DNA from: a virus
DNA: 25,323 bases
Virus record (IMG/VR): IMGVR_UViG_3300005841_000080
Span: 1 to 25,323 of that record
Direction: 5' to 3' (one strand)
The notes below the pieces were generated by a model. That model saw nothing but the letters and a program-made list of their open reading frames with translations, had not been told where the DNA came from and did not search any database. Every line of letters begins with the position of its first letter. The first letter of the stretch is position 1. Positions 5,872 to 25,323 of this stretch are shown in pieces. The position numbers and the translations under genes are program-made.

Positions 5872-5875
5872 GGGT

Positions 5876-12085: not shown

Positions 12086-12132
12086 GGCTCAATGCCCTCC
12101 CGGGCCGCCAGGTCAGGGATGCGGCATCGCTC

Positions 12133-12441: not shown

Positions 12442-12452
12442 CGGGGGGTCTC

Positions 12453-12992: not shown

Positions 12993-13003
12993 GTCACACC
13001 GTC

Positions 13004-13684
13004 CTAGATCGCGCTGGCGTCAAGGACGAGGGCGCCGATCGCGGCGGTGATCTGCCCCTGGCCTGCGAACTGTTCGGGGACGACCTTTTCGAAATAGACC
13101 TCGCCCTGGCCGGTGAGGTCGACCGCGGCACCACCGGAGGTCAGGGAGATCTGGAACGTGTCGGTGGCGGTGCCGACCACGAAGTAGGCGCCGCCCTCGG
13201 TGATGCCGGCCGGAATGGTTTCCCCGACGACGTTGAACAGGATCACCCGGTCCGCGTTGGCCAATCCGTGACCGTTGCTGGTGATCGTGTTGTTGGTCAC
13301 GTTGGTCGAGTCGACGGTGCCGAACCCCTTCTTCGGCGTGGCGCCACCGAAGACCGAGTAGCCGCGGAAGTTGTTCGTGTTACCACTGGAGGCGTTCCAC
13401 AGCGTGAAGAAGCCGTACGTCCCGGCCGGCACGTCGAACGTCAGCGCACCCGTGTTCGAGACCGAACCAGAGGCCGGGGTGCCCCACGTCACCGCGATCC
13501 GGGCGTAGGCCGGCGACCCACCGGTCGCCTCGGTCGCCGCGGCGTTCGTACCCGTGCCGGGGGTGGTGTCCGTGGGTGGGGCGGTGGTCAGGGTGTTGAT
13601 CCCGACGTGGGTGATGATGCCGGCGATCCCGCCACCGGTGCCGGACTTCAGGGCCTCGTTCTGGGCAATCGCGTTGAAGGGCAC
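13004..13684 (-). CDS. Virion protein with inserted HGLxxxDxV-type beta domain (226 aa)
   Basis: Putative virion-surface protein. The GTG start at 13682-13684 has GGGGAAG upstream. Residues 1-118 form an outer beta domain (HVGINTLTT...YARIAVTWGTPASG...FDVPAGTYGFFTLWNASS). Residues ~122-194 look like a separate mobile beta domain found inserted in many phage tail and head proteins: NNTITSNGHGLANADRVILF, then PAGITEGGAYFVVG and DTFQISLTSGGAAVDLTG. The outer domain resumes at GEVYFEKVVPEQFAGQG and finishes ALVLDASAI. The domain-in-domain reading is from pattern recognition and fits a surface-exposed, evolvable protein. It directly follows the adaptor. Confidence 0.7.
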   Translation of the reverse strand: MPFNAIAQNEALKSGTGGGIAGIITHVGINTLTTAPPTDTTPGTGTNAAATEATGGSPAYARIAVTWGTPASGSVSNTGALTFDVPAGTYGFFTLWNASSGNTNNFRGYSVFGGATPKKGFGTVDSTNVTNNTITSNGHGLANADRVILFNVVGETIPAGITEGGAYFVVGTATDTFQISLTSGGAAVDLTGQGEVYFEKVVPEQFAGQGQITAAIGALVLDASAI

Positions 13685-13710
13685 GGACTTCCCCTACTTT
13701 CCTGCGTGGT

Positions 13711-14580
13711 TCACGCGACGACCGGGCGGCGGTCCCGCCGGTAGCGGTGGTAGACGGCGTCGATCTCCTGGTAGCCGGTGTGGTCTTTGTCCGCGACGGC
13801 CATGACGGTGGCGTGCAGGGTGCCGGCCTCGTTGCTGTAGGTGGCCAGCCGGTCGGGGATGCCGGAGCGGGGCTCGTTGAGCAGGTGCCGGAGGTGGCTC
13901 ATCCCGGCGCCCGCGACCCGGCCGGGTGGCCGGTCGAGGCCGTGTTCGTACTCGACGACGATGTTCGACCCGCCGGCCGGCCAGATCGACCCGGTGGGCA
14001 GGGTGAGCATCCCCGACTCGGACAGGCCGACCGCGGCGACGGTGGGGGTGGACCAGGCGACCCCGGACACCGTGACGGAACGGAGCGCGCGCAGCCAGGG
14101 CCAGCGCACGCCGATACGGTCGCCGCCGTTGCCGGACAAGGTTTCCCGCCAGTACCGGGGCACGAACGCCTGGCGGCAGATGCGCTCGCAGTCGTCCTCG
14201 ACCTCGATACGCCTGGCCACGATTGCCGAGGTCGGATAGGTCGTCGTGTTGGCCAGTGACGGGTCACTGGCCCGTGCCTCGGCAATGCCGAAGTGGAAGC
14301 CGCCGACGATCTCGACCCGGTCGGTCAGGGTGACGGTGCCGCCGCCGAGGGTGCCGGTCCAGGCGACATCAAGCCAGTCGAGGTTCGTCTGGCTCGGCAG
14401 GACGAATGAGTAGGTGCCGGTGGCGCCGTGTGTGGCTGCGCCCGAGGTCACCCCGGTCCCGTCTGCCGCCCGCGTGACGGCCACGGTTACGGCTCCGCCT
14501 GCGTCGGTTGGTGTCTCGTCGACGTAGAAGACCCGGGTCAGGTTTGCTGCTGCGGTGCGGACGACCCGGATCAGGGACAC
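13711..14580 (-). CDS. Head-to-tail adaptor with N-terminal beta domain (289 aa)
   Basis: Probable head-tail adaptor that binds under the portal. The GTG at 14578-14580 overlaps the 3' end of the second glycosyltransferase gene by ten bases. Residues ~15-95 form a beta domain (RVFYVDETPTDAGG...GTYSFVLP...DRVEIVGG). The region ~113-150 carries the characteristic actinophage adaptor helices: TTYPTSAIVARRIEVEDDCE, then RICRQAFVPRYWRETLSG. The rest has a beta region (NIVVEYEHGLDRPPG) and a helix with HLRHLLNEPRSGIPDR. The protein is longer than a minimal adaptor because of the N-terminal domain. This is the first ordinary structural gene after the glycosylation cassette, and overlap with it implies shared late expression. 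Confidence 0.75.
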   Translation of the reverse strand: MSLIRVVRTAAANLTRVFYVDETPTDAGGAVTVAVTRAADGTGVTSGAATHGATGTYSFVLPSQTNLDWLDVAWTGTLGGGTVTLTDRVEIVGGFHFGIAEARASDPSLANTTTYPTSAIVARRIEVEDDCERICRQAFVPRYWRETLSGNGGDRIGVRWPWLRALRSVTVSGVAWSTPTVAAVGLSESGMLTLPTGSIWPAGGSNIVVEYEHGLDRPPGRVAGAGMSHLRHLLNEPRSGIPDRLATYSNEAGTLHATVMAVADKDHTGYQEIDAVYHRYRRDRRPVVA

Positions 14581-15293
14581 CGGGTGCTCCGCGCCTCGAC
14601 GAGGGCCTTGACCTTCACCGCGTCGCCGGCGAGGCCGGCGCCGCGCCACGCATCGAACGCCTGCCGGTCGGCTTGGTGCCGTGCTGCGGCGTTCGAGGCC
14701 CGGTAGCTGTCGTCCCAGGCCGCCTTGCCCGCAGCGGGGTGAAGGTGCTCGATGACCACGTCGGGTCGGTAGGCGATGCACCCGGCCGCCCGGCCCAACT
14801 CCAGCACCGCGTTGTCGACGTACATGTGCGCGCAGGTAGGCAGCATCATCCACCCGACCGCGCGGACGAGATCGGCGGACACGACCCAGGCGGTGGGTAG
14901 GTCCGGTCCCTGGAGCAGGTCGTTGCCGTAGGCGATTCCGACACCACCCGGCATCGCCTCGATCGCCTCGATGAGCTTCAGATTCCAGTCGCCGCGCGGC
15001 CGGTGGTCGTCGCCGAGCGATGCGAGGTAACGCGGCGGGTCGGGGCTGTCGATGGCCTGCTGGGCAAGATGGTTGGTCCAGGCCGACAGTGACCGACGCT
15101 CACCCCGGTAGGCATGAACGCGGAACGCCGCTGGCACGACTCGGCATACGCTCCAGTAGTCGGCCTTGTCGTCGTTGTCGAGACCGACCCAGATTTCGAC
15201 GCTGCCGGCCGTCGTGGTGTGGATCGCCAACTCCAGTTCGGCGAGCTGTTGCGGGCGGCCGCGCGATGGGGTGATGACGGCGAGGTCAGCCAT
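14571..15293 (-). CDS. Glycosyltransferase, GT-A / family 2-like (240 aa)
   Basis: Probable nucleotide-sugar glycosyltransferase. The ATG at 15291-15293 overlaps the upstream stop by eight bases. The N-terminus, ADLAVITPSRGRPQQLAEL, is the classic GT-A opening strand and nucleotide-binding loop. It continues VEIWVGLDNDD, then YLASLGDDHRPRGDW with GDDH at 94-97 in place of a DxD motif that would hold the metal and sugar nucleotide. A later VVSADLVRAVGWMMLP and YVDNAVLELGRAAG match the acceptor-side region of family 2 enzymes, followed by VIEHLHP. No membrane segment is present, so it should act in the cytoplasm on protein or sugar intermediates. It is the third gene of the cassette after the capsid gene and may extend a glycan begun by the fused enzyme at 15479-16840. 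Confidence 0.82.
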   Translation of the reverse strand: MADLAVITPSRGRPQQLAELELAIHTTTAGSVEIWVGLDNDDKADYWSVCRVVPAAFRVHAYRGERRSLSAWTNHLAQQAIDSPDPPRYLASLGDDHRPRGDWNLKLIEAIEAMPGGVGIAYGNDLLQGPDLPTAWVVSADLVRAVGWMMLPTCAHMYVDNAVLELGRAAGCIAYRPDVVIEHLHPAAGKAAWDDSYRASNAAARHQADRQAFDAWRGAGLAGDAVKVKALVEARSTRCP

Positions 15294-15486
15294 CGGTCGC
15301 CTCGTAACGGAAGACAAACAGCCCGTTAGCGCGGATCACCGTCACGTCGCTGAGCAGCGGTAGGCGTTCCATGACGAAACGCCGGATCTCCTCCGCCTCG
15401 ACCATTGTGATGCTGCCCTCGCACCGGACGATCAGGTGGTCGCCGGGTCGTACAACCGTGGCCTCGACGATCGGCACGTCAGCCAT
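15286..15486 (-). CDS. Small alpha/beta protein in glycosylation cassette (66 aa)
   Basis: Small protein with ATG at 15484-15486, overlapping the upstream gene by eight bases and the downstream one by eight. It has an RPGDHLIVRCEG strand, an acidic helix EAEEIRRFVMERLPLLSD, then VTVIRANGLFVFRYEATDG. Similar short RPGDxLVVR...RLPxVxVVV proteins are scattered in actinophage structural modules without known function. Its place between two glycosyltransferase genes may be meaningful, as an accessory or adaptor, or may simply reflect operon packing. Confidence 0.65.
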   Translation of the reverse strand: MADVPIVEATVVRPGDHLIVRCEGSITMVEAEEIRRFVMERLPLLSDVTVIRANGLFVFRYEATDG

Positions 15487-16840
15487 TGCGTACCCACCAG
15501 CCGGCCGGGTTCTGACTGACCGCCGACGTTCGCTCGACGGCGATGTCCCTCGACCATTCAGGCTGGCCGTACAGGAAGCGGGCCACCGCGTCCAGCGGTG
15601 TGCCGGCATTCGTCGACAGACCGTGGTCTCGCGAACGCGAATCGGCGCCGTAGCCGAACAGGGTGTCCTCGACCACGAGGTAACAGCCGGGCGATACCAG
15701 CCCGCCGTACAGCTTGATCTCCTCGGCGACGTGCGGGGCGGAGTGGTCGGAGTCGAGCGACACCATGCACCGTCGGCCGTCGACCAGTTCGGCCACCCTC
15801 GCCGCAATGTCCGGGTCGATGCTGCTGCCAAGGAGGTAGTCAACGCCGGTCGTGGGGGGTCCCAGCCTGGCGTGTGACACATCGACGGTGACGACCGCGA
15901 GGCCCTGTTCGGCGAACCAGCGGGCCGACGCGCCGGTGTGGGTGCCGGTCTCGACCACCACCTCCGGCTTGGTCGCCGCGATGATCGCGGCGTAGCGGTC
16001 CAGGTCGGCGGGCAGCTTCCACATGCCGTGGTGGTCGTGCTCGCCATGGGCCAGCGCTTCGAACGACTCCTCGATGTCGATGGCCACCGTGAGGTCCGGG
16101 TACGGCTGAAGGGTCACCGCTTCCTGCATGACGTAATCCAGCTCGGACAGCCAGACCTCCTTGTGGTGGGTGGTCTTGACGCCGGTGTGCACGACCGGGA
16201 CGATGCCGGCCTTGAGGAGCCGGCCGCAGAAGGCGATGTCCTCCCCGACGATGTCGTCCTGGTGGTCGTACAGCATGTCGAACCAGTGGTTGCCGACGTC
16301 GGCGCGTACCTTCTCCAGCGCCGATCGGTGGATGAGTAGGAACGCCGCGCCGGTTCCCGCGACCTCGGTGACCTTGTTGTCCTCGTAGTCGCCGAAGTAG
16401 CAGAACGACGGACGGTCGTCGTCCCCCGTCTTGCCGATCTTGTACATGGTGGGGACGATCGTGCGGCGCCACCCGCCCATTCCGTCGTACGCGGCCTCCA
16501 TCGCGGCGAAACACAGCGCGCCGACGACCGGGCGGGTCACCGGGTCGGCCGCTTCGTCCAGCAGTCGGTGGACGGCGTTGGCCGCCCACCCCATGTCGGT
16601 GTCGATGAACAGCAGCCACTCGTGGTCGGTCTTGTCCAGGAACAGGCGTGCGGCGTAGTTGCGGATGTGGGCGAGGATGCCCGACCCGCACCGCAGGTTG
16701 AGCGGCTTACGGGCGATGCGGCGACCGTGGTCGAGGTCGTATTCGAGCATGCCGCGCATGCTTTCGTGCCAGGAGTGGCTGACGTGCTCGTTGTGCAGGT
16801 AGGCGATCTGCACGATGCCGTCGCCGGGCTGGTTGGCCAT
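15479..16840 (-). CDS. Fused glycosyltransferase and CmcI-like sugar O-methyltransferase (453 aa)
   Basis: A two-domain enzyme. The ATG at 16838-16840 has AAGGG upstream. Residues ~10-235 are a GT-A glycosyltransferase: HIRNYAARLFLDKTDHEWLL, then the metal-binding DTD at 80-82, a VAGTGAAFLLIHRSAL acceptor-side stretch and GEDIAFCGRLLKAG at 199-212, as in family 2-like enzymes. Residues ~265-453 match the cephalosporin-hydroxylase/CmcI family of SAM-dependent methyltransferases: VVVETGTHTGASARWFA (SAM loop, 294-310), SLDSDHSAPHVAEEI (361-375), PGCYLVVEDTLFGYG (384-398), and the closing NPAGWWVRNG. Known relatives include rhamnosyl O-methyltransferases of mycobacterial glycolipids. The order suggests transfer and methylation of a sugar in one polypeptide. 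There is no transmembrane segment. It is first in a three-gene cassette after the capsid gene, so the acceptor is probably a virion protein; this is inferred. Confidence 0.85.
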   Translation of the reverse strand: MANQPGDGIVQIAYLHNEHVSHSWHESMRGMLEYDLDHGRRIARKPLNLRCGSGILAHIRNYAARLFLDKTDHEWLLFIDTDMGWAANAVHRLLDEAADPVTRPVVGALCFAAMEAAYDGMGGWRRTIVPTMYKIGKTGDDDRPSFCYFGDYEDNKVTEVAGTGAAFLLIHRSALEKVRADVGNHWFDMLYDHQDDIVGEDIAFCGRLLKAGIVPVVHTGVKTTHHKEVWLSELDYVMQEAVTLQPYPDLTVAIDIEESFEALAHGEHDHHGMWKLPADLDRYAAIIAATKPEVVVETGTHTGASARWFAEQGLAVVTVDVSHARLGPPTTGVDYLLGSSIDPDIAARVAELVDGRRCMVSLDSDHSAPHVAEEIKLYGGLVSPGCYLVVEDTLFGYGADSRSRDHGLSTNAGTPLDAVARFLYGQPEWSRDIAVERTSAVSQNPAGWWVRNG

Positions 16841-16855
16841 TGCGCCCTTTCGGTT

Positions 16856-16913
16856 GGGGGAGAGTCCCGGGCCCGTTCCGCGGCGCGGGACTCTCCCCCA
16901 CGTCGCGGAACGG
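16856..16913 (-). repeat. Two interleaved perfect inverted repeats after the capsid gene
   Basis: Stem A pairs 16856-16869 with 16886-16899 (14 bp). Stem B pairs 16873-16882 with 16904-16913 (10 bp). One B arm lies in the loop of A and the other outside it, so the two cannot be simple nested hairpins. They would have to alternate, or form a strained pseudoknot. They fill the gap between the capsid stop (16924) and the glycosyltransferase-methyltransferase start (16840). No T-run follows stem A. A role as terminator or attenuator of readthrough into the glycosylation cassette is inferred. Confidence 0.75.
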
Positions 16914-16923
16914 ACGATTGCGG

Positions 16924-18315
16924 TCAGCTACCGGAGTAGGCCAGCTTCGTGATGGACTTCGGGCGCCGCGCGAAGGTCACGGCCTCATAGCCCCACACGC
17001 CGATCCGGACCAGCGCCGGGCCTACCGGCTGCTCGAACTGGAACTGCATCGGCGGGGAGATCGAGAACAGCTGTTCCTGGCTGTTGAGGATGAAGCCGGT
17101 CGACGCGCCCACGCTCGGCGAGGTCACCACGTTCAGGGTCTCCAGCCGTCCCTGGAATCCACCGGCGAAGGTGTTGCCCAGATCGCCACGGCCGACGGGG
17201 TTCTGTGCCGGGTACGCCTGCGCCAGGATCAGCGGCCGGCCGGTGGTGTCCGTCAGCTTCAGGTACGAGGCCCACCGGGCCGAGGTGCCGACGAACAGGT
17301 CCGGGTCACCGGCCGGTGCGTCCGCGATCGCGACGATGCCGTCCAGGATGCCGGCCCGCTGGTTGATGATGTCCGTCGTGGTCAGCACGCCCGCGGAGAC
17401 GGTTGCGGTGTTCACGCCCGCGACCGCGGTGATCGCGACGATGGTGAGGATTTCGGCGTTGTCGTAGAAGTCGCCGATCATGTCCCCCCAGATGACGGCA
17501 TCGACCGCGGGGTTGCTGGCCTCCAACATCTGCCGGGACACCTCGGTGAACCCCGTGATGTCGGTCGGGGTGACCGTGATCGTGCCGTAGCCGGGGTTGG
17601 TGATCGTCGCGTTGATACCTTCCACGGTGCTCGACGTCTTGGCCACCGTCCCCGCGACCGGGATCGTCCACGCGAACGGGCCGGCCCACGGCACCTGACG
17701 CAGCTGTGCGGCCAGGCGCAGCTTCTTGTGCATGACCGGGGCGAACTCCTCGGCCAGCCACACCGGTGGGACGAGGCCGGCACCCAGCGTGGTCGCGCCC
17801 GCGCCGAGCACGGCACGCAGATGCGTGTCCTGCTGCGCCCGGCCGATCATGACCTGGGTGTACCGGGCGAGACGTTCGGCCGCCGCCTTGTCCCCCATCT
17901 TCTGCGACCGGTACTGGTCGGAGACGAAGGAGTACTCGCCGCCCCGGGTGTAGGTGCCCGGGTCGCGGTCCAGGGTCCGTCCGCCGCCCAGGTTCACCGA
18001 CCGGGTGCCGGTATCGACGCTGTCCTGGCGGTCGTCGGGTTCCTGGCCATCCTCACCGGCGACCCGCGCGGCAGCGGCACCGGCGACCAGGTCGTTCATC
18101 TGGGCGACCTTGGCGTTGCGGACCTCGATCTCCGACAGATCCTCGATCTGCTGGTACAGAACCTGCGAGCGCTCGCCCATGTCGACGACCGACCGCAGTT
18201 CCTCGGAGGTCATGTCTCGGCGGCCTTCGGCGGCCCGTTGCTGAAGGCCGGCGATGGACGTCTGCAACGTCGCGTACTGCTCTTTCAGCGACTCAAGGTA
18301 GATGTTCTTGGGCAC
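16924..18315 (-). CDS. HK97-fold major capsid protein with N-terminal delta domain (463 aa)
   Basis: Major head shell protein. The GTG at 18313-18315 was chosen because GGAG lies 6 bases upstream and the downstream sequence starts the expected scaffold helix; upstream starts would add a Cys/Pro-rich, unlikely leader. Residues ~1-70 form a coiled coil (LKEQYATLQTSIAGLQQRAA and YQQIEDLSEIEVRNAKVAQ), the delta or scaffolding domain that the protease removes. A linker follows (~85-125). The core has the usual strands and helices: AVLGAGATTLGAGLVPPVW, VPWAGPFAWTIPV, GFTEVSRQMLEASNPAVDAV, GNTFAGGFQGRLETLNVV, and a C-terminal VGPALVRIGVWGYEAVTFAR. The order protease then capsid is canonical. A structured leader precedes it. 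Confidence 0.92.
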   Translation of the reverse strand: MPKNIYLESLKEQYATLQTSIAGLQQRAAEGRRDMTSEELRSVVDMGERSQVLYQQIEDLSEIEVRNAKVAQMNDLVAGAAAARVAGEDGQEPDDRQDSVDTGTRSVNLGGGRTLDRDPGTYTRGGEYSFVSDQYRSQKMGDKAAAERLARYTQVMIGRAQQDTHLRAVLGAGATTLGAGLVPPVWLAEEFAPVMHKKLRLAAQLRQVPWAGPFAWTIPVAGTVAKTSSTVEGINATITNPGYGTITVTPTDITGFTEVSRQMLEASNPAVDAVIWGDMIGDFYDNAEILTIVAITAVAGVNTATVSAGVLTTTDIINQRAGILDGIVAIADAPAGDPDLFVGTSARWASYLKLTDTTGRPLILAQAYPAQNPVGRGDLGNTFAGGFQGRLETLNVVTSPSVGASTGFILNSQEQLFSISPPMQFQFEQPVGPALVRIGVWGYEAVTFARRPKSITKLAYSGS

Positions 18316-18325
18316 GACAATCTCC

Positions 18326-18387
18326 ACGTTTCCACAGGGACAGGGATGCTCCGTGTGACCGGGGTGTCGCACAATCCGTGGAAACGT
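18326..18387 (-). promoter_or_regulatory. Inverted repeat in the capsid gene leader
   Basis: The arms ACGTTTCCAC (18326-18335) and GTGGAAACGT (18378-18387) are perfectly complementary over 10 bases, with a 42-base loop. On the minus strand, the 3' arm ends beside the GGAG that serves the capsid start. The 140-base protease-to-capsid gap also has four near copies of GGGTGT(C/T) on the plus strand (about 18362, 18393, 18412, 18434). It could control capsid translation or mRNA stability; no known RNA family was recognised. Confidence 0.45.
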
Positions 18388-18455
18388 CGTGAGGGTGTCG
18401 GCCGGGGGCCGGGGTGTTCACGCGCCGGACGCGGGGTGTCGGTCTGAGCTGGGTG

Positions 18456-19091
18456 CTACTTCCTCTTGGCGTTGAACGGTAGGCCGAGCTTGATGGTGCG
18501 GATCAACAGGTCGGTGTCGGGCAGGTCGCGGATGGCGCCGGGCATCAGGAACTGCTCGGCGCGCCTTTTCAGGTCTGCGTCGGCCTCGTCGAACACGGCC
18601 TGGGTGGCGCGGCTGCGGACGCCGACCACCGCCGCCTGGTCGCCGTAGGCGCCTTCCATGACGATGGCCACCTCGCGCAGGTCGGCGGTGACCCGTTCCA
18701 CGGTGCCGTCGGCGAGTTTGCGGTCCTTCGCCGCCCGGAACATGATGCTGAGCTGGTCGAGGGCGTGGTCGCGGACGAGTTCCAGCGTCTCGTCCCCGGC
18801 CGGGGTCTTCGACGTCTGTAGCTCCACGTACAGGCCGGCGGCGTCGTCGCGCAGCAGCGACGCCGCGCCGATCAGCGTCCCGCCCAGCAGCGCGTGTTCC
18901 CGCGCGAACTTCACCCGCTGCGGCTTGTCGAGCTGGTGGTTGAACGCGCCCCGAGAAAACTGCTCGACCAGCCGGTCGTCGATGCGGGTCGGCGCGTAGT
19001 ACGGCACCGCGATCCCGTACACGGTCCGGCCACCGCCGGAGGAGCGGACTTCCAGGTCCGGGGCGAAGGAGCGGAACAGGTTTTCGGTCAT
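18456..19091 (-). CDS. HK97-type prohead serine protease (211 aa)
   Basis: Head maturation protease of the S78-type family that cleaves the capsid delta domain. The ATG at 19089-19091 follows the previous stop by three bases. The conserved opening is present (VYGIAVPYYAPTRIDD, then EQFSRGAF). Likely catalytic residues are His66 in REHALLGG and Ser115 in LDQLSIMF, with an acidic residue near 139-145 (LREVAIVMEGAYGDQAAV). The stretch DDAAGLYVELQTSKTPAGDE is the usual central strand region. A C-terminal helix-rich tail (DEADADLKRRAEQF onward) may be scaffold-like. Length and order between portal and capsid match the family. Confidence 0.92.
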   Translation of the reverse strand: MTENLFRSFAPDLEVRSSGGGRTVYGIAVPYYAPTRIDDRLVEQFSRGAFNHQLDKPQRVKFAREHALLGGTLIGAASLLRDDAAGLYVELQTSKTPAGDETLELVRDHALDQLSIMFRAAKDRKLADGTVERVTADLREVAIVMEGAYGDQAAVVGVRSRATQAVFDEADADLKRRAEQFLMPGAIRDLPDTDLLIRTIKLGLPFNAKRK

Positions 19092-19094
19092 GTC

Positions 19095-19367
19095 TCAGCC
19101 CCGCCGGGTGCCGTCGCGGAAGTAGTGCATCTCGTGCGCCGAGCAGATCTTCGCGCCGGGTACGACCCGGCCGTCGGCGTAGTGCCCGGTGCCGTCGTCG
19201 ACGACGCACATGCCCGGATCGCTCCGGGTCGCCTTCGGGGCGGGCTCGTCGTCCACGGCCGGCGTCGGGTCGGCCTTCGACGCGTCGCCGGAGGAGCGGG
19301 ACGTGTGGTGCAGCGCCGCCGTGTCGGTCTCGGGCCCGGTAGCCCTGCTCTCGGTTGCTTTCGCCAC
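19095..19367 (-). CDS. Small protein between portal and protease, unknown (90 aa)
   Basis: The GTG at 19365-19367 has AGGAG 8 bases upstream. The N-terminal half is low in complexity and rich in Ala, Ser, Thr, Asp and Pro. The second half is compact, with GMCVVDDGTGHYADGRVVPG, then AKICSAHEMHYF. Two Cys and two His (Cys-xn-Cys-x2-His-x2-His) could bind one metal ion, but this is a guess. It is spaced 10 bases from the portal stop and 3 bases from the protease start, so it is co-expressed with both. I know of no assigned function for such proteins in this slot. Confidence 0.65.
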   Translation of the reverse strand: MAKATESRATGPETDTAALHHTSRSSGDASKADPTPAVDDEPAPKATRSDPGMCVVDDGTGHYADGRVVPGAKICSAHEMHYFRDGTRRG

Positions 19368-19377
19368 GACTGCGCTC

Positions 19378-20658
19378 CTATCCGTCGTACTTGCTGGGTT
19401 GCTGCGCCTTCTTGGCCGACTTCGGGGGCTTGATCGGCTCGGCGGGCGTCATGGGTCGCATCGGGGTGGTGGTGGGCGTGATGGCGGGTGGGGAGACGTA
19501 GGCGTCCGGCATGGCCGGTTTGTCGGGCAGCGGCGGACGGTGCTCCAACTCGCGGACCTCGTCGGTCGTCAGGAACCCGTTCTTCAACGCGATCTCGTGG
19601 GCCTGGTATCTGGTCAGGGTGTCGGCCCGGAGGATGGCGTCGACGTTGGCCCTGGCGCACGTTCCGCGGGGGAACGCCAGCGTCAGGGTCTGCTCGAACC
19701 TGGCGACATGTCCGCCGAGGGAGAACTTGAGGAGGTTCACCTCGTCCTGGGAGATGTTGCTGTACTGCCTGGCGCTGTTCATCCCACCGAGCCAGCCCAC
19801 GGGCAGGCCGAAGACCAGCTCCAGCTCGTTGAGGGTCATCTTGCGGGCCTCGACGAGTTGCAGCTGCTCCGGATTCCAGCTCAGCGGCACGAACTTTGTG
19901 GACGCGTTCGTGACCGCGATCGACCGGGTCCGCTGGTTGGCGAGCCACTGCGCCTTCAGGTCCATCGCCTCGGTCTCGGTCAGGTCGGGGTTCGAGGACT
20001 CCAGGACGCCGGTGGGGACGCCGTGGGTGGACAGCGACCGGGCCTGCGACGACTGTTCCTGCGCCAGGCTGAACGTGTTGAGGTGGTTCTCCAGGACGCC
20101 CATGCCCCGCACCGCGCCGGGCTCACAGGGGCCCTTGATATGGATGACGTCCTGGCTGCCCAGCGCCTTCAGGCTCCCGATCGTGTACTCCAGGGCGCCC
20201 ACGGGTAGCGGGGAGTCCGTGTATTGGGTGACCCGCCGGACCTGACACATCTGCGCCGGAACCGGCAGGATCGCCGTGGGCCAGCCGGCGTAGTTGCGGG
20301 CGGCGATGACCCCGATGGCGTTGCCGTGGAAGATCAGGTCCAGGCCCATCGACGAGAACGTTGTCATCCGGGTGTCCGGTGGGGACGGCTGCTCCAGTAA
20401 CGGCGGAGTGGGGTAGATCTTCTCTTCGGGCCGGTCGGCGTACTCGCGGTAGCTGTCCCAGGGGAACTGGCCGAGCAGGTCCGACAGCAGCACTGAGGCC
20501 CGCCACGCTCCCGGGATGCCCAGGGCTCCGCGGTACGTTCCTGGGCTGACGAAGTCCGGGCCAAGGTTGTCGATGATCGTGTAGTTCTGGCTGACACCGG
20601 TCACCGTGTCCGTCGCGGTGATCCGCGTCGACCGGGTGAACAGGCGTCCCAGGCCCAT
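19378..20658 (-). CDS. Portal protein, HK97/SPP1-type siphovirus (426 aa)
   Basis: Portal subunit forming the dodecameric gate through which DNA is packaged. The ATG at 20656-20658 was chosen because it directly follows the upstream stop; upstream codons in frame lie inside that gene. Portal features are an N-terminal LGPDFVSPGTYRGALGIPGAW, the EYADRPEEKIYPTPPLLEQP turn, MTTFSSMGLDLIFHGNAIGV, and then IHIKGPCEPGAVRGMGVLENH. The stem-like region has LMTxNE-like helices (LKAQWLANQRTRSIAVTNAS and LELVFGLPVGWLGGMNSARQ), and AFPRGTCARANVDAILRADT near the crown. It is 426 residues, typical of HK97-like portals. It lies between terminase and protease, as expected. Confidence 0.92.
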   Translation of the reverse strand: MGLGRLFTRSTRITATDTVTGVSQNYTIIDNLGPDFVSPGTYRGALGIPGAWRASVLLSDLLGQFPWDSYREYADRPEEKIYPTPPLLEQPSPPDTRMTTFSSMGLDLIFHGNAIGVIAARNYAGWPTAILPVPAQMCQVRRVTQYTDSPLPVGALEYTIGSLKALGSQDVIHIKGPCEPGAVRGMGVLENHLNTFSLAQEQSSQARSLSTHGVPTGVLESSNPDLTETEAMDLKAQWLANQRTRSIAVTNASTKFVPLSWNPEQLQLVEARKMTLNELELVFGLPVGWLGGMNSARQYSNISQDEVNLLKFSLGGHVARFEQTLTLAFPRGTCARANVDAILRADTLTRYQAHEIALKNGFLTTDEVRELEHRPPLPDKPAMPDAYVSPPAITPTTTPMRPMTPAEPIKPPKSAKKAQQPSKYDG

Positions 20659-20659
20659 G

Positions 20660-20887
20660 TCAGATCTTGCCGGCCTCGCGGAGCATGCCGACCACGACGA
20701 GCGTGACCCCACCGACCATGAGGGTGACGGCGAGGCCCCATTGCAGGTAGATGCCGGTGCCGGCGCCGGCGGCGCCGCCGAGTTGGGCCAGCAGCGGCCA
20801 GGACGGCAGGGCGGGGAACCGCAGGCCCCGGACGCGTGGCTTGGCGGGGAGCCGTGCCGCAGCCTCGAACGTCTCGTAGGTGGTCAC
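20660..20887 (-). CDS. Small membrane protein between terminase and portal (75 aa)
   Basis: The start is GTG at 20885-20887, with GGAGAG about 4 bases upstream. It ends one base before the portal start, so the genes are coupled. The N-terminal ~30 residues are polar and basic. Residues ~31-70 are hydrophobic (LLAQLGGAAGAG, then WGLAVTLMVGGVTLVVVGML), predicting one or two membrane helices, and it ends REAGKI. No signal peptidase motif was seen. A membrane protein in this slot is unusual for a packaging module. It might be a late inner-membrane protein, for instance in lysis timing or superinfection exclusion, but no evidence decides. Confidence 0.7.
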   Translation of the reverse strand: MTTYETFEAAARLPAKPRVRGLRFPALPSWPLLAQLGGAAGAGTGIYLQWGLAVTLMVGGVTLVVVGMLREAGKI

Positions 20888-20901
20888 GTCTCTCCTCGCG
20901 G

Positions 20902-22404
20902 TCAGTAGACCTTGGACCTCGGCGTCATGGCCCGGCGTAGCGCCCACAGCGCGGCGGTGACCGCACCGGCGGGGCAGAACCCGGTGGAGTTCTGGCGGTC
21001 CCAGGCCCGGGCGTCGCCGAGTTTGCGTTCCTGACCGCCAGCGACGGCGGTGTTGAGCGCGTGCTGGTTGCCGTGCCGCACGTTGCGGGCCGCGGTGTCC
21101 TTGCCGGCGACCCCGTCGACGAGGTCTCCGAACGAGCGGGCGGCGTCCTGCATGGTCATCTTGACCAGGGGGATGTTGGCGTCCTCGAAGTCCTTCAGCA
21201 GCGACCCGGCCGGCCCGCCGGGGTCGAGGGCGAGGACGCTGCCCGGCCACCGTTTCAGCAGTTCCTGCGCTCGGGGCAGGCACCATCCGGTGCCGGGCCG
21301 GTGGTCGACCCCGTCGTCGTTGGCGGTGAGTTCGACCTGCCTTAGCCCGTCGCCGCGGCGCCACGCCACGCCGATGGCGGCCATGCTGTGGTCCCATTCG
21401 ACTTCCAGGCCGAACGCGATCGGTTTTTCCGGCGCGTCGGGGACGTCGATGGCGGCGGTCCAGTCGGGTTCGGAGATGACCAGCCACCGGGCGATCTCGT
21501 CGATCGGCCAGACGCCGAGGTGTTCGGTGTCGAACTTCTCGGGCCTACCGGCCTCAGTGAACGCCTGCAGCTGCTTGGCGAGGAACCACTCGGAGATTCG
21601 GATGCCGAGGGCCGGGTTGCAGTCGTACCAGACCTGGGGGTCGGTCCGGTCGAACTTCTCCGGCGGCGACCACTCGTACACGGCGACCCGGTCGCCACCG
21701 TCCGAAACTGCGCGGCGCCGCACTGAGGGCAGCATCGCGTCTTCGGGGACCGGGCCGATGTCCTCGTCGGGAGGTGTGGTCGTGTAGATGATCTGTGGGT
21801 TCGGGATTGTGGCCAGCGTCGGCGTCTGCGCGGCGAACTGGCCCACCGTCAACGCCCACGCCTCGTCAAAGATGGTCTTGGACCCGGTCAGGCCACGGCC
21901 CGCGCCCAGGGACCGGGCCACGAACTGCAACATGCCGCCGCCGGCGTGGCGCGTGAGGTAGATCCCGGGGTCGTTGGTCCCCTGGACGATCCGCTGGACC
22001 CGTTTCGACAACCAGTCCGACCCGTCGATGATCTCCTTGAGTCGACGCAGAGCGGCCATCGAGGTGCGGAACTGGTGCGCGCTGTGCAGGATCAGCGGCT
22101 CGCGGAACAGGAACAGCCCGCCCAACTCGACCGCTTCGGTGAACCCCCCCTTGCCGTTCTGCCGGCTGACCAGGAGAAGCAGCTCGTAGGCGGACCACAG
22201 CCCGTCGTCACGGATCCCGAACGCGTCGCGGGTGATGGACGCCTGCCACGGGTCCAGGGGACGCCCGATCTGGTCCATGAAGTCCACGACCTCGTCGCCG
22301 TACGTTCTGACGTACGGCGGCGCCTTATGAACCCGCGGCGCCTGCGACCCGAGTCTTACGCCGTTCGGCGAGGTCGTCGCGGACGGCACCAGCAATTCGG
22401 TCAA
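20902..22404 (-). CDS. Terminase large subunit (500 aa)
   Basis: Motor ATPase and nuclease that packages DNA. The TTG at 22402-22404 was chosen over a TTG at 22440 because GGGAGA lies about 6 bases before it; the gene then overlaps the small subunit by 80 bases. Residues 71-90 (SAYELLLLVSRQNGKGGFTE) hold the Walker A variant SRQNGKG, and 177-183 hold Walker B (TIFDEAW). The adenine-binding and coupling region (YTTTPPDED, ~207-215) follows. The C-terminal nuclease has LEVEWDHSMAAIGVAW (~333-348), LALDPGGPAGSLL (~391-403) and an Asp near 464-469, probably the acidic catalytic residues, assigned tentatively. Length and motifs fit HK97-like actinophage terminases. Confidence 0.93.
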   Translation of the reverse strand: MTELLVPSATTSPNGVRLGSQAPRVHKAPPYVRTYGDEVVDFMDQIGRPLDPWQASITRDAFGIRDDGLWSAYELLLLVSRQNGKGGFTEAVELGGLFLFREPLILHSAHQFRTSMAALRRLKEIIDGSDWLSKRVQRIVQGTNDPGIYLTRHAGGGMLQFVARSLGAGRGLTGSKTIFDEAWALTVGQFAAQTPTLATIPNPQIIYTTTPPDEDIGPVPEDAMLPSVRRRAVSDGGDRVAVYEWSPPEKFDRTDPQVWYDCNPALGIRISEWFLAKQLQAFTEAGRPEKFDTEHLGVWPIDEIARWLVISEPDWTAAIDVPDAPEKPIAFGLEVEWDHSMAAIGVAWRRGDGLRQVELTANDDGVDHRPGTGWCLPRAQELLKRWPGSVLALDPGGPAGSLLKDFEDANIPLVKMTMQDAARSFGDLVDGVAGKDTAARNVRHGNQHALNTAVAGGQERKLGDARAWDRQNSTGFCPAGAVTAALWALRRAMTPRSKVY

Positions 22405-22600
22405 GCGGACTCTCCCTACCGACGACCGGCAGCGAGTCAAGCTCGCGGATCACGTCGCGGAGTTCCTTCGACAGGACCGCAACGTCGCGGCCCTCAGCTT
22501 CCTGGAGTTCCTGGGCGACCTTGTTGCGGATGGCTTCCAGTGACGCACGCCGGTCGTCGCGGTCGACGATCGTGGACAGGTTCGGGCGTCCGCGGGTCAT
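22325..22600 (-). CDS. Terminase small subunit-like protein (91 aa)
   Basis: Probable small terminase, which recognises the packaging start on DNA. The ATG at 22598-22600 follows an AAGGAA sequence. It starts TRGRPNLSTIVDRDDRR, then has a helical body LEAIRNKVAQELQEAEGRDVA with SKELRDVIRELDSL, typical of the short actinophage small subunits, and a basic tail DDLAERRKTRVAGAAGS. Its gene overlaps the large subunit. It is short for the wider family, so the DNA-binding function may rest with its N-terminal basic part. The noncoding stretch beside it is a natural place for its recognition site. Confidence 0.75.
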   Translation of the reverse strand: MTRGRPNLSTIVDRDDRRASLEAIRNKVAQELQEAEGRDVAVLSKELRDVIRELDSLPVVGRESPLDRIAGAVRDDLAERRKTRVAGAAGS

Positions 22601-22628
22601 TTCCTTACTCTCCGCTTATCCGGATTGC

Positions 22629-22645
22629 CGTTACCAACGGTAACG
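22629..22645. promoter_or_regulatory. 17-bp palindrome, operator-like or leader hairpin
   Basis: CGTTACC and GGTAACG flank a three-base centre (AAC on the plus strand). It sits 29 bases before the small terminase start. As DNA it has operator form; as RNA it is a 7-bp hairpin with a 3-base loop. A related half-site (GTTACCGAACGTGA) lies near 22934. Binding by any regulator is inferred. Confidence 0.4.
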
Positions 22646-22832
22646 AGTCCAGGATCACCCGAGTCGCCACTACTGGCCGTCACAATGGGCAGTGGCGGAG
22701 GGTAGTGCCCCGATTCGGCGGCCCAAGGTGCGATCATCCTTTCGGTCGAGTTCTCCCTAAGGCGTGATCCACGAGCAAGCCGCTGACCTGCATAAACGCG
22801 ATCCGCGAGGGTTAGATGATCTCCGTATAGGC

Positions 22833-22893
22833 TTGATCAAAAAAAATCGGAGGGCGGGTGGCTCTCGGCCGCGTGTTGATCAGGAAAAAATCG
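22833..22893 (+). repeat. Direct repeat with phased A-tracts
   Basis: Copies at 22833-22849 and 22876-22893 share TTGATCA, then A-rich sequence (8 A in the first, 6 A in the second), then ATCG. They are 43 bases apart, about four helical turns, so the A-tracts face the same side of the helix and could bend the DNA. A binding site for terminase or a host factor is possible. Confidence 0.5.
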
Positions 22894-23051
22894 ACCCGAC
22901 CCTATGTTACTCTCAGTCAATGATCATCCGAATGTTACCGAACGTGATATTCCCTTGATCCACATGATCCCGAGCAATGTGACGCACGGTTACATCGACA
23001 CGAACCGCACCGATACGAGGCCCATCCGCGACGCTCGATCAGTCACGATCA

Positions 23052-23408
23052 TCACCATCGACGATCAGCACTACGCTTCGGCACAGGCACAGCCCGCGTC
23101 CTCGCGCCGTTGCCATGCGACAGGTTGCACCGCCTATGCGCAGGCCCCCCATTGGCAGGGTCCAGCGGCGCACCCCCACGGGTGAGCGGCACCAGGTGAT
23201 CAGCAGTGGCCGACATGGGGTCCCTCCACGGGAGCCTCTTGTCGATAGGCCGACCGCACCTGCAGCAGATGGGTACAGCAGCAGCCAGAACCTTCTCCCG
23301 CCACCGCCTGTACGGCCTACCCATACGGCCCTTACGCAGCTCAGGGTCCCTGTATGTGGTCCACCGCTGCTTACGCTCGGCGTACGTGGGGTGCCTGAGC
23401 CTGCCCAC
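23052..23408 (-). CDS. HNH endonuclease (118 aa)
   Basis: HNH nuclease of the kind that assists terminase cleavage in many phages. The GTG at 23406-23408 is the likely start, but it has no ribosome binding site of its own. Residues 1-45 are basic and helical. The zinc-binding Cys48/49-x-x-Cys51 region (ICCRCGRPI) precedes ADHLVPLTRGG (His71), Asn86 in DPANGGPA, and HRRCNLSHGN, where His91/Cys94 replace the second Cys pair. A short ATG frame of nine codons (23411-23440), with GGAGG upstream, ends two bases before the GTG and might couple translation. Neighbouring terminase genes support a packaging function. Confidence 0.85.
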   Translation of the reverse strand: MGRLRHPTYAERKQRWTTYRDPELRKGRMGRPYRRWREKVLAAAVPICCRCGRPIDKRLPWRDPMSATADHLVPLTRGGAPLDPANGGPAHRRCNLSHGNGARTRAVPVPKRSADRRW

Positions 23409-23493
23409 AACTACGGGGTACAGCGCCAGGGTGCGGGCATGGGGGTTCCCCTCCTACAGGGGTAAGGGATTCCGGCGAGGGTGCCTGATAGCG

Positions 23494-23516
23494 GGCACGC
23501 AGAAGTCCGGCGTGCC
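23494..23516 (-). terminator. Hairpin downstream of lipoprotein gene
   Basis: GGCACGC (23494-23500) and GCGTGCC (23510-23516) make a perfect 7-bp stem with a 9-base loop, 28 bases after the lipoprotein stop. There is no T-run, as is common in high-G+C terminators. Termination activity is inferred. Confidence 0.45.
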
Positions 23517-23543
23517 GATCATCTGTCCTGACCAGCGAATCCG

Positions 23544-24056
23544 TCAAGTCGCCACGTCGATCAGCACATCACCAATCAGCACCGACGTGATCCGAACCCC
23601 ATCCGGCACGTCGAAGACGTACTGGTTCGTGTCCTTCACCCCCGGGTTCACCGGGCCCGCGAGCCAGCGGGTGCCCTCGTACCGGCGTCCCTTCACGTCG
23701 AACGCGGCGAAGTCAGGGCTCGACGTGTCGTCGAACCGCGCCGGCTCCGCCTTGGTGTTGGTGTACTCGATCGACGCCACGCACACCCGCCCCGGATGAC
23801 CCGCATCATCGCCGTTCTGGAGCAGCTTGCCCGCCTCGCCGCACTGCGCGCCAACCAGGACCATCCGCCAACCCGGCACGTCGAACGGCTTACCCACCTC
23901 CCCCGACCTGCTCGACGAGGACGGCGAGACCGGATTTGGTGCGGGTTCCGCAGACGGGCGGCCTCCGGTCGGGGACGCAGCCGGCGACCCATCGTCCGAA
24001 CAGCCAGCCAGCAACACCAGAGCGACAGCAGCAACCACCAGGAAGGGTCGAGTCAC
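23544..24056 (-). CDS. Lipoprotein with DUF4352/telokin-like domain, own promoter (170 aa)
   Basis: Secreted, lipid-anchored protein. The GTG at 24054-24056 was chosen because it begins the signal peptide exactly and lies 5 bases after a -10 box. Residues 1-18 form a signal sequence (VTRPFLVVAAVALVLLAG), with lipobox LAGC and acceptor Cys19. A disordered Ser/Pro/Ala linker (~20-50) follows. Residues ~50-170 form an Ig-like beta domain: VGKPFDVPGWRMVLVGAQC, then CVASIEYTNTKAEPARFDD, DFAAFDVKGRRYEG, and a final YVFDVPDGVRITSVLIG. This order is like DUF4352 domains of actinobacterial lipoproteins. It stands alone between a promoter and a hairpin inside a phage packaging region. A phage-encoded surface lipoprotein could block superinfection, as Ltp does in a streptococcal phage; this is inference. 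Confidence 0.85.
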   Translation of the reverse strand: MTRPFLVVAAVALVLLAGCSDDGSPAASPTGGRPSAEPAPNPVSPSSSSRSGEVGKPFDVPGWRMVLVGAQCGEAGKLLQNGDDAGHPGRVCVASIEYTNTKAEPARFDDTSSPDFAAFDVKGRRYEGTRWLAGPVNPGVKDTNQYVFDVPDGVRITSVLIGDVLIDVAT

Positions 24057-24061
24057 GGCTG

Positions 24062-24091
24062 ACAGTATGACCCAAGACCACAACCTGTCAC
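24062..24091 (-). promoter_or_regulatory. Sigma-70-like promoter for lipoprotein gene
   Basis: On the minus strand, -35 GTGACA (24086-24091, five of six to TTGACA) is followed after 18 bases by -10 TACTGT (24062-24067, TANNNT). Five bases then precede the GTG start at 24056, so the transcript would be leaderless or nearly so. Together with the hairpin at 23494-23516, this makes the lipoprotein gene a self-contained unit. Confidence 0.65.
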
Positions 24092-24141
24092 ATAGACCGA
24101 TGGGAGTCGCTTCGCTCCCCGCCTAACGGCGGAGTGGCTGA

Positions 24142-24333
24142 TCAATCGCCGTCGCTGAACGGAACGAGCCGGCTGAACACCGGCATCACCACCCCGTCGC
24201 TCGCCGCGGCCCACTGGCACGCCAGAAGCTCAGCAACAAGAGGGCGGTCGGCGGCGATCAGGTACTTGCGGATCTCGTCCATACGGGGCGGGCGTCTCAG
24301 CGCCACGCCTACGTGGACCTCGTAGACGCCCAT
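24142..24333 (-). CDS. Small protein, unknown (63 aa)
   Basis: The ATG at 24331-24333 overlaps the upstream stop (TGATG), so translation is coupled; the longer frame to 24381 lies inside the upstream gene and is unlikely. It begins MGVYEVHVGVALRRPPRMDE, then IRKYLIAADRPLVAELLACQ, then a WAAASDGVVMPVFSRLV strand. It looks like a compact alpha/beta protein with no signal or membrane segment. I do not recognise the family. Coupling with the 90-residue gene suggests a shared function. Confidence 0.6.
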   Translation of the reverse strand: MGVYEVHVGVALRRPPRMDEIRKYLIAADRPLVAELLACQWAAASDGVVMPVFSRLVPFSDGD

Positions 24334-24605
24334 CAGGCCGGCACGTCGCAACGACCCGGATGACCCAACGGCTGCTTGCAATCATCGCTACACGCCGGGC
24401 TCACACCGTCACGTGCCAGCAGCGGCCGGACGTCACGGTGGGCCGCATAGAGGTGCGCAAGGTCGGTACGTAGACACACCGCGCGACCTGCACGGACGTC
24501 ATCGGCCCCGAAGACGCACTCGGCCACCTCGATGACAACGGGTATGGAGTCCTGGCCGGCAGGGCCCCTGATCAGGCCGCCGCGGGCGAAGTCTTTCGAG
24601 GTCAT
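24333..24605 (-). CDS. Small protein with tape-measure-like motif and Cys knuckle (90 aa)
   Basis: The ATG at 24603-24605 has a GAGG site upstream. Residues ~6-37, FARGGLIRGPAGQDSIPVV and then AECVFGADDV, resemble the GGLLSGPGG...KIPIWASNGEYVIPAHVV motif of the tape measure at 2113-5871, a motif also seen in small free-standing actinophage proteins. The C-terminus has ACSDDCKQPLGHPGRCD, a Cys/His cluster that could bind zinc. It is translationally coupled to the 63-residue gene. The product probably works early rather than in the virion, given its upstream place. Function is unknown. Confidence 0.65.
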   Translation of the reverse strand: MTSKDFARGGLIRGPAGQDSIPVVIEVAECVFGADDVRAGRAVCLRTDLAHLYAAHRDVRPLLARDGVSPACSDDCKQPLGHPGRCDVPA

Positions 24606-24663
24606 GTTGGCACATCCTCAGCTCCACCTAGCCGGCCCTGGACTTTGGGCACCAGTGGACTGC

Positions 24664-25248
24664 TCACGCCGCTTCTCCGTTCGAGTCCAGCTCATCATGC
24701 TCCGCGGCCTCAGCAGCGAGGTCGTCCCGCCACGTGTGCTGTCCGCAGTTTCTACACCAAAGGCACCGAATTACCCCCGTCTCGCCGCGTTCCACCCACA
24801 TCGCCGGCTGCCGGGTCTCGTGCGGCTCCTCAACAGCCGGCACCCAGCGCACCTGATCCGGCCTACCCGGCTCCGGATCGGGCACCGACACCACCCACCG
24901 CTCCCCACAGTGCCGGCAGCTCACGCCGACGATGCCGCGGCCGGCCGACTCCGGCGGGGACAACATCCCCTCAATGCGGATCTTCCACCTGCGGCAGTTC
25001 CGCTCCACCGCCACCGCCATCAGGTCCCGGTCCGTCCGCCCCGCGATCGCCGCAGCCACCGCCCGCAACAGCAGCCCGGTCATCGGCGGAGAATCCGGGT
25101 CCGTGTCGGTCGGGCCGTTGCGGTACCGGCGGCGGTCCAACCCCAGCACCGCAGCCCACGCCCCCACACTGGCCAGGATCTCCGTCCACAAATCCAACGC
25201 ACCCTGATCCAACGGAGCCCGCGTCCCCGGAGACGTCCGACCCCCCAC
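24664..25248 (-). CDS. Zinc-ribbon actinophage protein, 5' end uncertain (194 aa)
   Basis: Unnamed actinophage family: a helical N-terminal half (ALDLWTEILASVGAWAAVLG, then TGLLLRAVAAAIAGRTDRDLM and NCRRWKIRIEGMLSPP), followed by paired Cys knuckles (SCRHCGERW and RCLWCRNCGQHTW) that probably bind zinc. It ends in an acidic tail. The GTG at 25246-25248 is only a placeholder start. The frame remains open through the terminal palindrome to the window edge (reading EAIASSSGG upstream), so the gene may begin outside the reliable sequence. This family is common near the start of the packaging side of actinophage genomes, but its job is not known to me. Confidence 0.65.
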   Translation of the reverse strand: MGGRTSPGTRAPLDQGALDLWTEILASVGAWAAVLGLDRRRYRNGPTDTDPDSPPMTGLLLRAVAAAIAGRTDRDLMAVAVERNCRRWKIRIEGMLSPPESAGRGIVGVSCRHCGERWVVSVPDPEPGRPDQVRWVPAVEEPHETRQPAMWVERGETGVIRCLWCRNCGQHTWRDDLAAEAAEHDELDSNGEAA

Positions 25249-25323
25249 CCCACCACTCGACGAGGCGATCGCCTCGTCGAGTGGTGGGGTGGGGGGTCGG
25301 ACGTCTCCGGGGACGCGGGCTCC
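25214..25323. repeat. 110-bp perfect palindrome at the window edge (arms of 55 bases)
   Basis: Bases 25214-25268 are the exact reverse complement of 25269-25323. The centre is the natural palindrome GAGGCGATCGCCTC. The arms stop exactly at the window edge and are each 55 bases, a common de Bruijn k-mer size, so an assembly fold-back is likely. It includes the presumed 5' end of the gene at 24664-25248. Confidence 0.95.

What the first reader, a model, noticed from the sequence alone, without database searches (positions are those of the whole stretch)
23494..24091. Self-contained lipoprotein unit in the packaging region
The gene has a -35/-10 pair with 18-base spacing, a leaderless GTG, a clear lipobox and a hairpin after its stop. 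All of this is independent of the surrounding phage operon. Phage-encoded surface lipoproteins are known to block DNA entry of superinfecting phages (for example Ltp in a streptococcal phage). The DUF4352-like domain makes a mechanism by tape-measure or cell-wall contact possible.
Basis: partly seen in the sequence, partly recalled or inferred. Interest (0 to 1): 0.52.

Follow-up and report, generated by a model that had tools for sequence, protein, structure and literature searches.

The report
Phage surface lipoprotein with own promoter
A soil bacterial virus carries a separately controlled gene for a small protein that is probably anchored on the outside of its host's membrane, switched on by the same kind of signal as the gene that keeps the virus dormant, and its most likely job is to protect the dormant virus's host, for example against other viruses.

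Summary
On the minus strand GTGACA (24091-24086), 18 bases, TACTGT (24067-24062) lies 5 nt before GTG 24056, so the transcript would be leaderless. The protein (170 aa) has a good lipobox (LAGC, Cys19). The post-stop hairpin (23516-23494) is real but unremarkable and lacks a T-run, so the terminator is unproven.
A second phage (G002; 97% identical protein) keeps promoter, gene and hairpin, with a 17-base spacer, inside a homology block that starts sharply at 24139; its upstream genes differ. Across 4986 start codons of the near-identical circular phage G001, only four have this promoter geometry: the lipoprotein, the cI-like repressor and two small ORFs. The G002 repressor has it too. This points to expression in the lysogen.
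The ectodomain is predicted to be an MPT63/DUF4352-like beta-sandwich (1LMI, Z 11.1), not an Ltp fold. Distant relatives in actinophages mostly sit beside the integrase; some share the leaderless architecture.
Best reading: a moron, a lysogenically expressed surface lipoprotein of the DUF4352-like kind already known in actinophages. Superinfection exclusion is the likeliest function but untested; tape-measure contact has no support here.

The parts
24114..24138 (-). hairpin just after the stop of the upstream gene; possible upstream insulator, no T-run
   Evidence: fold and shuffles, 50-nt stretch -18 kcal/mol, z -1.45; the one base that differs in G002 (GTTA to GTGA) is in the loop
24095..24108 (-). 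second weak hairpin of the same stretch
24062..24091 (-). promoter GTGACA-N18-TACTGT, 5 nt before the start codon (leaderless geometry)
   Evidence: kept in G002 with a 17-nt spacer
23544..24056 (-). lipoprotein gene, GTG start, 170 aa: signal peptide 1-18, lipid-anchor Cys19, Ser/Pro-rich linker about 20-49, beta-sandwich domain about 50-170
23494..23516 (-). 7-bp GC-rich hairpin 28 nt after the stop codon; terminator function unproven
   Evidence: identical in G002
23411..23440 (-). 9-codon leader ORF (MPAPWRCTP, stop) behind a strong GTAGGAGGGG, ending 2 nt before the HNH start; boundary of the next unit
   Evidence: read; kept in G002
23052..23408 (-). HNH endonuclease next to the small terminase; its 5' half lies in the same homology block as the lipoprotein
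   Evidence: PF01844 E 4.5e-7; phrog_338 E 1.2e-21; identity profile

Best explanation
The unit is a moron: one gene with its own promoter, sitting between the early genes and the HNH/terminase genes of a temperate actinophage. In the lysogen, host RNA polymerase starts at the GTG itself (same -35 and the same leaderless geometry as the phage's cI-like repressor gene), so the gene is on while the lytic operons are off (inferred). The product is exported, lipidated on Cys19 and held outside the membrane on a Ser/Pro-rich linker (predicted). It displays a DUF4352/MPT63-like Ig-type beta-sandwich (predicted). Most likely role: protecting the lysogen at the envelope, with superinfection exclusion at DNA entry or receptor level the single likeliest function (inferred by analogy). 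My confidences: lipoprotein 0.9; own promoter active in the lysogen 0.75; superinfection exclusion 0.4.
For: Promoter geometry found at 4 of 4986 start codons in G001 and 5 of 2474 in G002; in both phages the list contains this gene and the cI-like repressor (repressor family hit). The phage is temperate: integrase, antirepressor, excisionase-like gene, divergent repressor/HTH pair. The block 24138 to about 23239 is 85-100% identical per 60-nt window between two phages (11 of 15 windows at 97% or more), while upstream it drops to 40-57%. Only lipobox ORF in each phage. Fold: 1LMI Z 11.1, 3CFU Z 9.9; best viral fold matches are actinophage lipoproteins and DUF4352 phage proteins; profile match to DUF4352 lipoproteins 95.6%. 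In 12 other phages looked at, 10 have the relative within about 2.5 kb of the integrase, a place for lysogenic genes; Jablanski's lies alone among tail genes, on the opposite strand, and is also leaderless. For K4 mycobacteriophages (Chancellor gp44 and kin) the authors suggest lysogenic expression and defence (PMC5679791, passage).
Against: No expression or phenotype data. Not all relatives are leaderless: 3 of 9 sequence families are, against 3 of 173 other annotated genes; several have a ribosome-binding site instead. Unlike most relatives, this gene points the same way as the late operon, so late read-through is possible. The terminator is weak. dN/dS is uninformative: 5 amino-acid changes and 3 silent codon changes between the two phages. 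No shared operator with the repressor region was seen by eye.
Confidence: 0.5

Rival explanations
1. Lysogenic conversion without exclusion: the lipoprotein acts on the host envelope (adhesion, cell-wall or lipid binding, stress), and any effect on other phages is incidental.
For: The closest solved fold is the secreted M. tuberculosis protein MPT63, followed by other secreted or lipoprotein beta-sandwiches of bacteria; a Nostoc plasmid DUF4352 lipoprotein is the nearest sequence in the plasmid set.
Against: Fold says nothing about function; phage genomes keep relatives mainly beside integrase/repressor genes, where known exclusion genes also lie.
Confidence: 0.3
2. A lytic-phase receptor blocker (T5 Llp-like in logic, recalled): made during infection to stop progeny from being lost on debris or to stop a second phage.
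For: Same orientation as the late operon, directly upstream of HNH/terminase genes, so late read-through is possible.
Against: Own leaderless promoter shared with the repressor; relatives are mostly opposite to structural genes.
Confidence: 0.12
3. An immunity lipoprotein for a secreted polymorphic toxin.
For: Some prophage immunity proteins of M. abscessus are predicted lipoproteins (PMC8092301, passage); the relative in prophiGD05-1 lies next to a polymorphic toxin/immunity pair.
Against: The gene next to it here is a small HNH protein of the packaging type without a secretion domain; no toxin gene was recognised nearby.
Confidence: 0.05
4. A chance ORF or silent remnant with a promoter-like sequence.
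For: The hairpin alone is explainable by chance; no expression data exist.
Against: 97% identical intact homologue with the same promoter in a second phage; beta-sandwich model matching secreted proteins; Cys19 lipobox conserved.
Confidence: 0.03

Closest known systems
MPT63/DUF4352-type lipoproteins of actinophages (Fionnbharth gp44, Chancellor gp44, Eyre gp34, Sleepyhead gp36, Jablanski gp17)
   Same: Lipobox or signal peptide, Ser/Thr/Pro-rich linker, DUF4352/MPT63-like domain, temperate actinophage; Jablanski's and Eyre's also have a -10 in leaderless position
   Different: Sequence identity is marginal (27% over 82 aa at best); here the gene lies between early and packaging genes, co-directional with the late operon, far from the integrase
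Ltp of Streptococcus thermophilus phage TP-J34 (PMC3952083, passages only)
   Same: Phage-encoded lipoprotein with a lipid anchor, Ser-rich spacer and an outer domain; described as a moron transcribed in the prophage
   Different: No Ltp family match, beta-sandwich instead of repeat domain, not in the lysogeny module; no exclusion shown
Cutibacterium acnes phage Aquarius gp41 (PMC11480721, passages only)
   Same: Actinophage exported protein proposed for superinfection resistance
   Different: Reported as Ltp/cystatin-like; its authors call the mechanism unconfirmed; not compared by sequence here
PHROG 806
   Same: Match E 8.2e-5 over residues 15-155; Sleepyhead gp36 and the Nostoc DUF4352 protein match it best too
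   Different: Family of unknown function; weak match, weaker still for the G002 homologue (E 0.0027)

Membership tests
Bacterial lipoprotein (lipobox class) | Positive N-terminus, hydrophobic stretch, L-[A/S/T/V]-[G/A]-C within the first 35 residues | tested here: met
   MTRPFLVVAAVALVLLAGC, kept in both phages; Pfam LPAM_1 only E 0.43, below its cut-off
DUF4352 (Pfam PF11611) | Match to the Pfam model over its curated cut-off | tested here: not met
   No hit at E<=1 nor at E<=10 in a six-frame search; so it is not filed as a PF11611 member
DUF4352/MPT63-like fold group | Ig-like beta-sandwich like MPT63 or YjhA | tested here: met
   1LMI Z 11.1 over 112 residues, 5BXG 11.0, 3CFU 9.9, 4LES 9.7; model from only two near-identical sequences, mean pLDDT 70.9, about 82 over 51-170. 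That YjhA is a DUF4352 protein is recalled
DUF4352/MPT63-like fold group | Profile similarity to proven DUF4352 lipoproteins | tested here: met
   hhalign 95.6%, E 1.1e-8 for a single comparison, against an alignment of 4, of which 2 (Sleepyhead gp36, Nostoc) were tested and pass the PF11611 cut-off
Ltp (host cell surface-exposed lipoprotein) | Ltp repeat domain recognised by Pfam | tested here: not met
   No Ltp-type family among hits at E<=1; predicted all-beta
Ltp (host cell surface-exposed lipoprotein) | Blocks DNA injection through the tape-measure protein | not testable with these tools
   Mature protein is acidic (pI 4.67, -6.2), own tape-measure C-terminus is not basic; targets would be other phages
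Moron | Own promoter | tested here: met
   sequence level only
Moron | Own terminator | tested here: inconclusive
   7-bp hairpin without T-run
Moron | Inserted as a unit between phage genes, different neighbours in relatives | tested here: met
   sharp homology edge at 24139; other edge inside the HNH gene
Moron | Expressed in the prophage and useful to the lysogen | not testable with these tools
   only inferred from the repressor-like promoter

The most novel reading that the evidence does not exclude
Temperate actinophages carry a scattered class of Ig-like (MPT63/DUF4352-type) surface lipoproteins that are wired to the repressor's own leaderless lysogenic promoter style and act as a second, envelope-level immunity layer; because the unit brings its promoter along it can be planted even in the packaging region, as here, or among tail genes, as in Gordonia phage Jablanski.
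Probability: 0.25. Interest if true: 0.6.

Novelty: new member of a known kind. Interest (0 to 1): 0.38.

Why it matters
Most genes of temperate phages are silent in the lysogen, so the few with repressor-style promoters are the best candidates for functions that change the host. A start-codon scan for leaderless promoters picked out the repressor and this lipoprotein in two related phages, which suggests a cheap way to find lysogenic genes from sequence. If the Ig-like lipoproteins do exclude other phages, they would be an envelope-level defence class distinct from Ltp. The prediction is directly testable in existing Gordonia and Mycobacterium smegmatis phages that carry relatives.

Tried and rejected
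Ltp membership: rejected on family search and fold. DUF4352 as a Pfam assignment: not met, kept only as fold and profile likeness. Known defence families: no PADLOC hit at E<=0.1 for 4 proteins of the region. RNA families: none over threshold in 5 sources. Solved structures by sequence: one irrelevant hit, E 0.42. NCBIfam: nothing over cut-off. Host: two scans of genome contigs, with the lipoprotein and with the terminase alignment, found nothing, so the host is only inferred as actinobacterial from terminase relatives (the named groups are mostly Mycobacterium, Gordonia, Arthrobacter, Propionibacterium, with some Streptococcus and Lactococcus). GenBank phages by tblastn with the lipoprotein: none at E<=1 of 50,697 records. 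Universal leaderless rule for the class: rejected; Sleepyhead, Fionnbharth, Milly, Miramae, prophiT49-3, prophiGD05-1 and Wanderer do not have it. In counting families I grouped window with L003, Eyre with Angelique, Sahara and ThankyouJordi, and Fionnbharth with Milly; Jablanski, Sleepyhead, Miramae, prophiT49-3, prophiGD05-1 and Wanderer counted one each (9 in all). Adephagia gp40 has the -10 but I dropped it before the family count because it lacks a lipobox cysteine and is only 100 aa. prophiT49-3, prophiGD05-1 and Wanderer relatives look membrane-anchored without a lipobox (read). Before I had a narrower count of 3 of 5 families (p 0.0002); the fuller 3 of 9 gives p 0.0016, and the sample was chosen by similarity, not at random. 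The background of 173 genes left out the lipoproteins and repressors, and a few genes of the fetched stretches that were cut, joined or had a second start. Of six repressors looked at, three (G001, G002, Sleepyhead) show the leaderless -10 and three (Eyre, Fionnbharth, Adephagia) do not. Operator sharing between repressor region and lipoprotein promoter: looked for by eye only in the output, none seen.

Papers: searches. I saw search listings with abstract starts, and passages of PMC11480721, PMC11373665, PMC3952083, PMC8092301 and PMC5679791; no paper was read whole. No listed paper links DUF4352 to phage exclusion (3 papers, all on staphylococci by title).

Full report
What is there. The window is a 25,323-base virus record. 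It is part of a phage of which a near-identical longer record, G001 (67,816 bases), is held: two blocks of 99.97-100% identity cover window 1-11049 and 10924-25275, and they overlap on the window, so the two ends of G001 repeat about 126 bases and the window spans the join; G001 is therefore a circular, essentially complete molecule. The window's last 45 bases or so are an inverted copy of the bases before them and are not found in that position in G001 or G002, so they look like an assembly fold-back. The main genes in the window run on the minus strand: three early genes, the lipoprotein, HNH, small and large terminase, portal, protease, capsid, and so on to the tape measure.

The unit. On the minus strand, in order: hairpins after the stop of the upstream gene (24138-24114 and 24108-24095), GTGACA 24091-24086, an 18-nt spacer, TACTGT 24067-24062, 5 nt, GTG 24056, a 170-codon gene ending at 23544, then a 7-bp hairpin 23516-23494. 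The gaps to the neighbouring genes are 85 nt and 135 nt. There is no Shine-Dalgarno. The start is supported by the homologue in G002 (locus L003), where one base of the spacer is missing: the spacer is then 17 and the alternative upstream TTG falls out of frame. The hairpin is real but of a kind found in 147 of 3000 random 70-nt windows and after 11 of 86 predicted genes, and it has no T-run, so I do not count it as a shown terminator.

More than chance? I scanned every ATG, GTG and TTG on both strands for a TANNNT 4-8 nt upstream with a -35 of at least 4 of 6 at 16-19 nt. G001: 4 of 4986. They are this gene; the 145-aa cI-like repressor (G001 36029, GTGACA-N17-TAGCCT-7 nt-ATG); a 56-aa ORF at 47155 with a perfect TTGACA; and a 105-aa ORF at 38963. 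G002: 5 of 2474, namely this gene, the repressor homologue (8377) and a second start 2 nt from it, and two short ORFs. The repressor call rests on PHROG repressor families (E 6e-9), a divergent 89-aa HTH gene and an antirepressor with KilAC and BRO domains downstream. The same -35 letters (GTGACA) stand before repressor and lipoprotein in G001. The criterion was written around this gene, so its own hit is no test, but the repressor's hit in both phages is.

Mobility. Between the window and G002 identity per 60 nt is 0.85-1.00 from 24138 to about 23239 (11 of 15 windows at 0.97 or more), and drops to 0.40-0.57 just upstream (24139-24618) and 0.60-0.73 downstream inside the HNH gene. The unit with its promoter is thus one side of a recombination block; the upstream genes differ. 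The protein is 97% identical (5 substitutions and a 2-residue gap in the linker). Non-coding and coding parts are about equally conserved, so this is recent shared ancestry and not a measure of constraint; 5 replacement and 3 silent codon changes are too few for dN/dS.

The protein. Signal peptide with LAGC lipobox, Ser/Pro-rich linker, folded domain. No Pfam domain; PF11611 not found at E<=10. PHROG 806 E 8.2e-5 (0.0027 for the G002 copy), a family also hit by Sleepyhead gp36 and a Nostoc plasmid lipoprotein, both of which pass the Pfam DUF4352 cut-off. A model from two sequences (mean pLDDT 70.9; about 82 for residues 51-170; the five models ranged from 41 to 71) is a beta-sandwich whose best solved matches are MPT63 (1LMI, Z 11.1, 112 residues, 2.9 A), 5BXG (11.0), YxkC in a model (11.0), YjhA 3CFU (9.9), 4LES (9.7) and YcdA 4R4G (8.3), standing above the other rows at 7.6 and below. 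Among predicted viral structures the best is the Sleepyhead lipoprotein (E 3.5e-7), followed by unnamed, DUF4352 or DUF5067 phage proteins and the Eyre lipoprotein. Profile comparison to four such proteins gives 95.6%. Pairwise BLAST to Fionnbharth gp44 gives E 2e-5 for one comparison, to the Nostoc protein 3e-11 for one comparison but 0.04 in the plasmid search that found it, and to Sleepyhead gp36 only 0.11.

Where the relatives live. I looked at the neighbourhood of 12 phages with DUF4352-like proteins (chosen by similarity to the fold hits). In 10 the gene lies within about 2.5 kb of the integrase: Sleepyhead, Eyre, Sahara, ThankyouJordi, Angelique, Fionnbharth, Milly, Miramae, prophiT49-3 and Wanderer. 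prophiGD05-1 has it next to a polymorphic toxin locus. Jablanski has it alone between tail chaperone and tape measure, on the opposite strand. Tblastn finds 34 Gordonia records of the Eyre type and 55 records of the Fionnbharth type, 48 of them Mycobacterium. A TANNNT 4-8 nt before the start is found in 3 of 9 sequence families (window/G002; Jablanski; Eyre and its three relatives looked at) against 3 of 173 other annotated genes (Fisher p 0.0016), and the three background hits are an HTH gene beside Eyre's lipoprotein, the gene divergent from Fionnbharth's repressor, and Adephagia's integrase. So the leaderless promoter is a feature of lysogeny-region genes in these phages and of some, not all, of these lipoproteins.

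How it probably works. Shown at sequence level: lipobox, leaderless promoter geometry shared with the repressor, conserved unit. Predicted: export, lipidation, Ig-like domain. Inferred: expression in the lysogen while lytic genes are off, and protection of the lysogen at the envelope. Ltp itself was described as a moron with a lipid anchor, Ser-rich spacer and repeat domain, transcribed in the prophage (PMC3952083, passages); the architecture is alike, the domain is not. For the MPT63-like lipoproteins of K4 mycobacteriophages the authors already suggested lysogenic expression and defence (PMC5679791, passage). So the kind is known; the position in the packaging region with a portable repressor-style promoter is the new detail.

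Verdict. Observation confirmed, with the terminator part unproven. Interpretation partly supported. A new, divergent member of a known kind: lysogenic surface lipoprotein moron of an actinophage.

Noticed in passing
window 25279-25323: The last 45 bases or so are the inverted copy of the bases just before them; G001 and G002 continue differently, so this is probably an assembly fold-back.
   Followed up: yes
window 23411-23440: A 9-codon leader ORF behind a strong ribosome-binding site ends 2 nt before the HNH start and is kept in G002; possible translational coupling or leader control.
   Followed up: partly
L015 16029-16466 (G001 36029-36466) and L018 near 8377: The cI-like repressor genes of both phages have leaderless promoters with GTGACA or GTGACC at -35; a similar one precedes the Sleepyhead repressor.
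   Followed up: yes
L016 about 2067-5463 (G001 42067-45463), with the regulator gene at G001 39524-40951: A DUF2637/HTH protein and an FtsK/SpoIIIE-like protein lie near the integrase and tRNA-Val, resembling the transfer genes of actinomycete integrative elements inside a phage genome.
   Followed up: no
L016 9659-11233 (G001 49659-51233): A TROVE-domain (Ro60-like) protein gene, PF05731 E 5e-20; no known RNA family over threshold in the phage.
   Followed up: partly
window 15482-16840: A 453-aa protein between capsid and tail genes with a C-terminal rhamnosyl O-methyltransferase/CmcI domain (PF04989 E 4e-30), possibly glycan modification of the virion.
   Followed up: no
G001 47155 (L016 7155): A 56-aa ORF with a TTGACA-N17-TATATT promoter in leaderless position; another candidate lysogenic gene.
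   Followed up: no
phage TM4, NC_003387.1 31152-31277: A short C-terminal remnant (81% over 42 residues) of the Fionnbharth-type MPT63-like gene remains in TM4.
   Followed up: no
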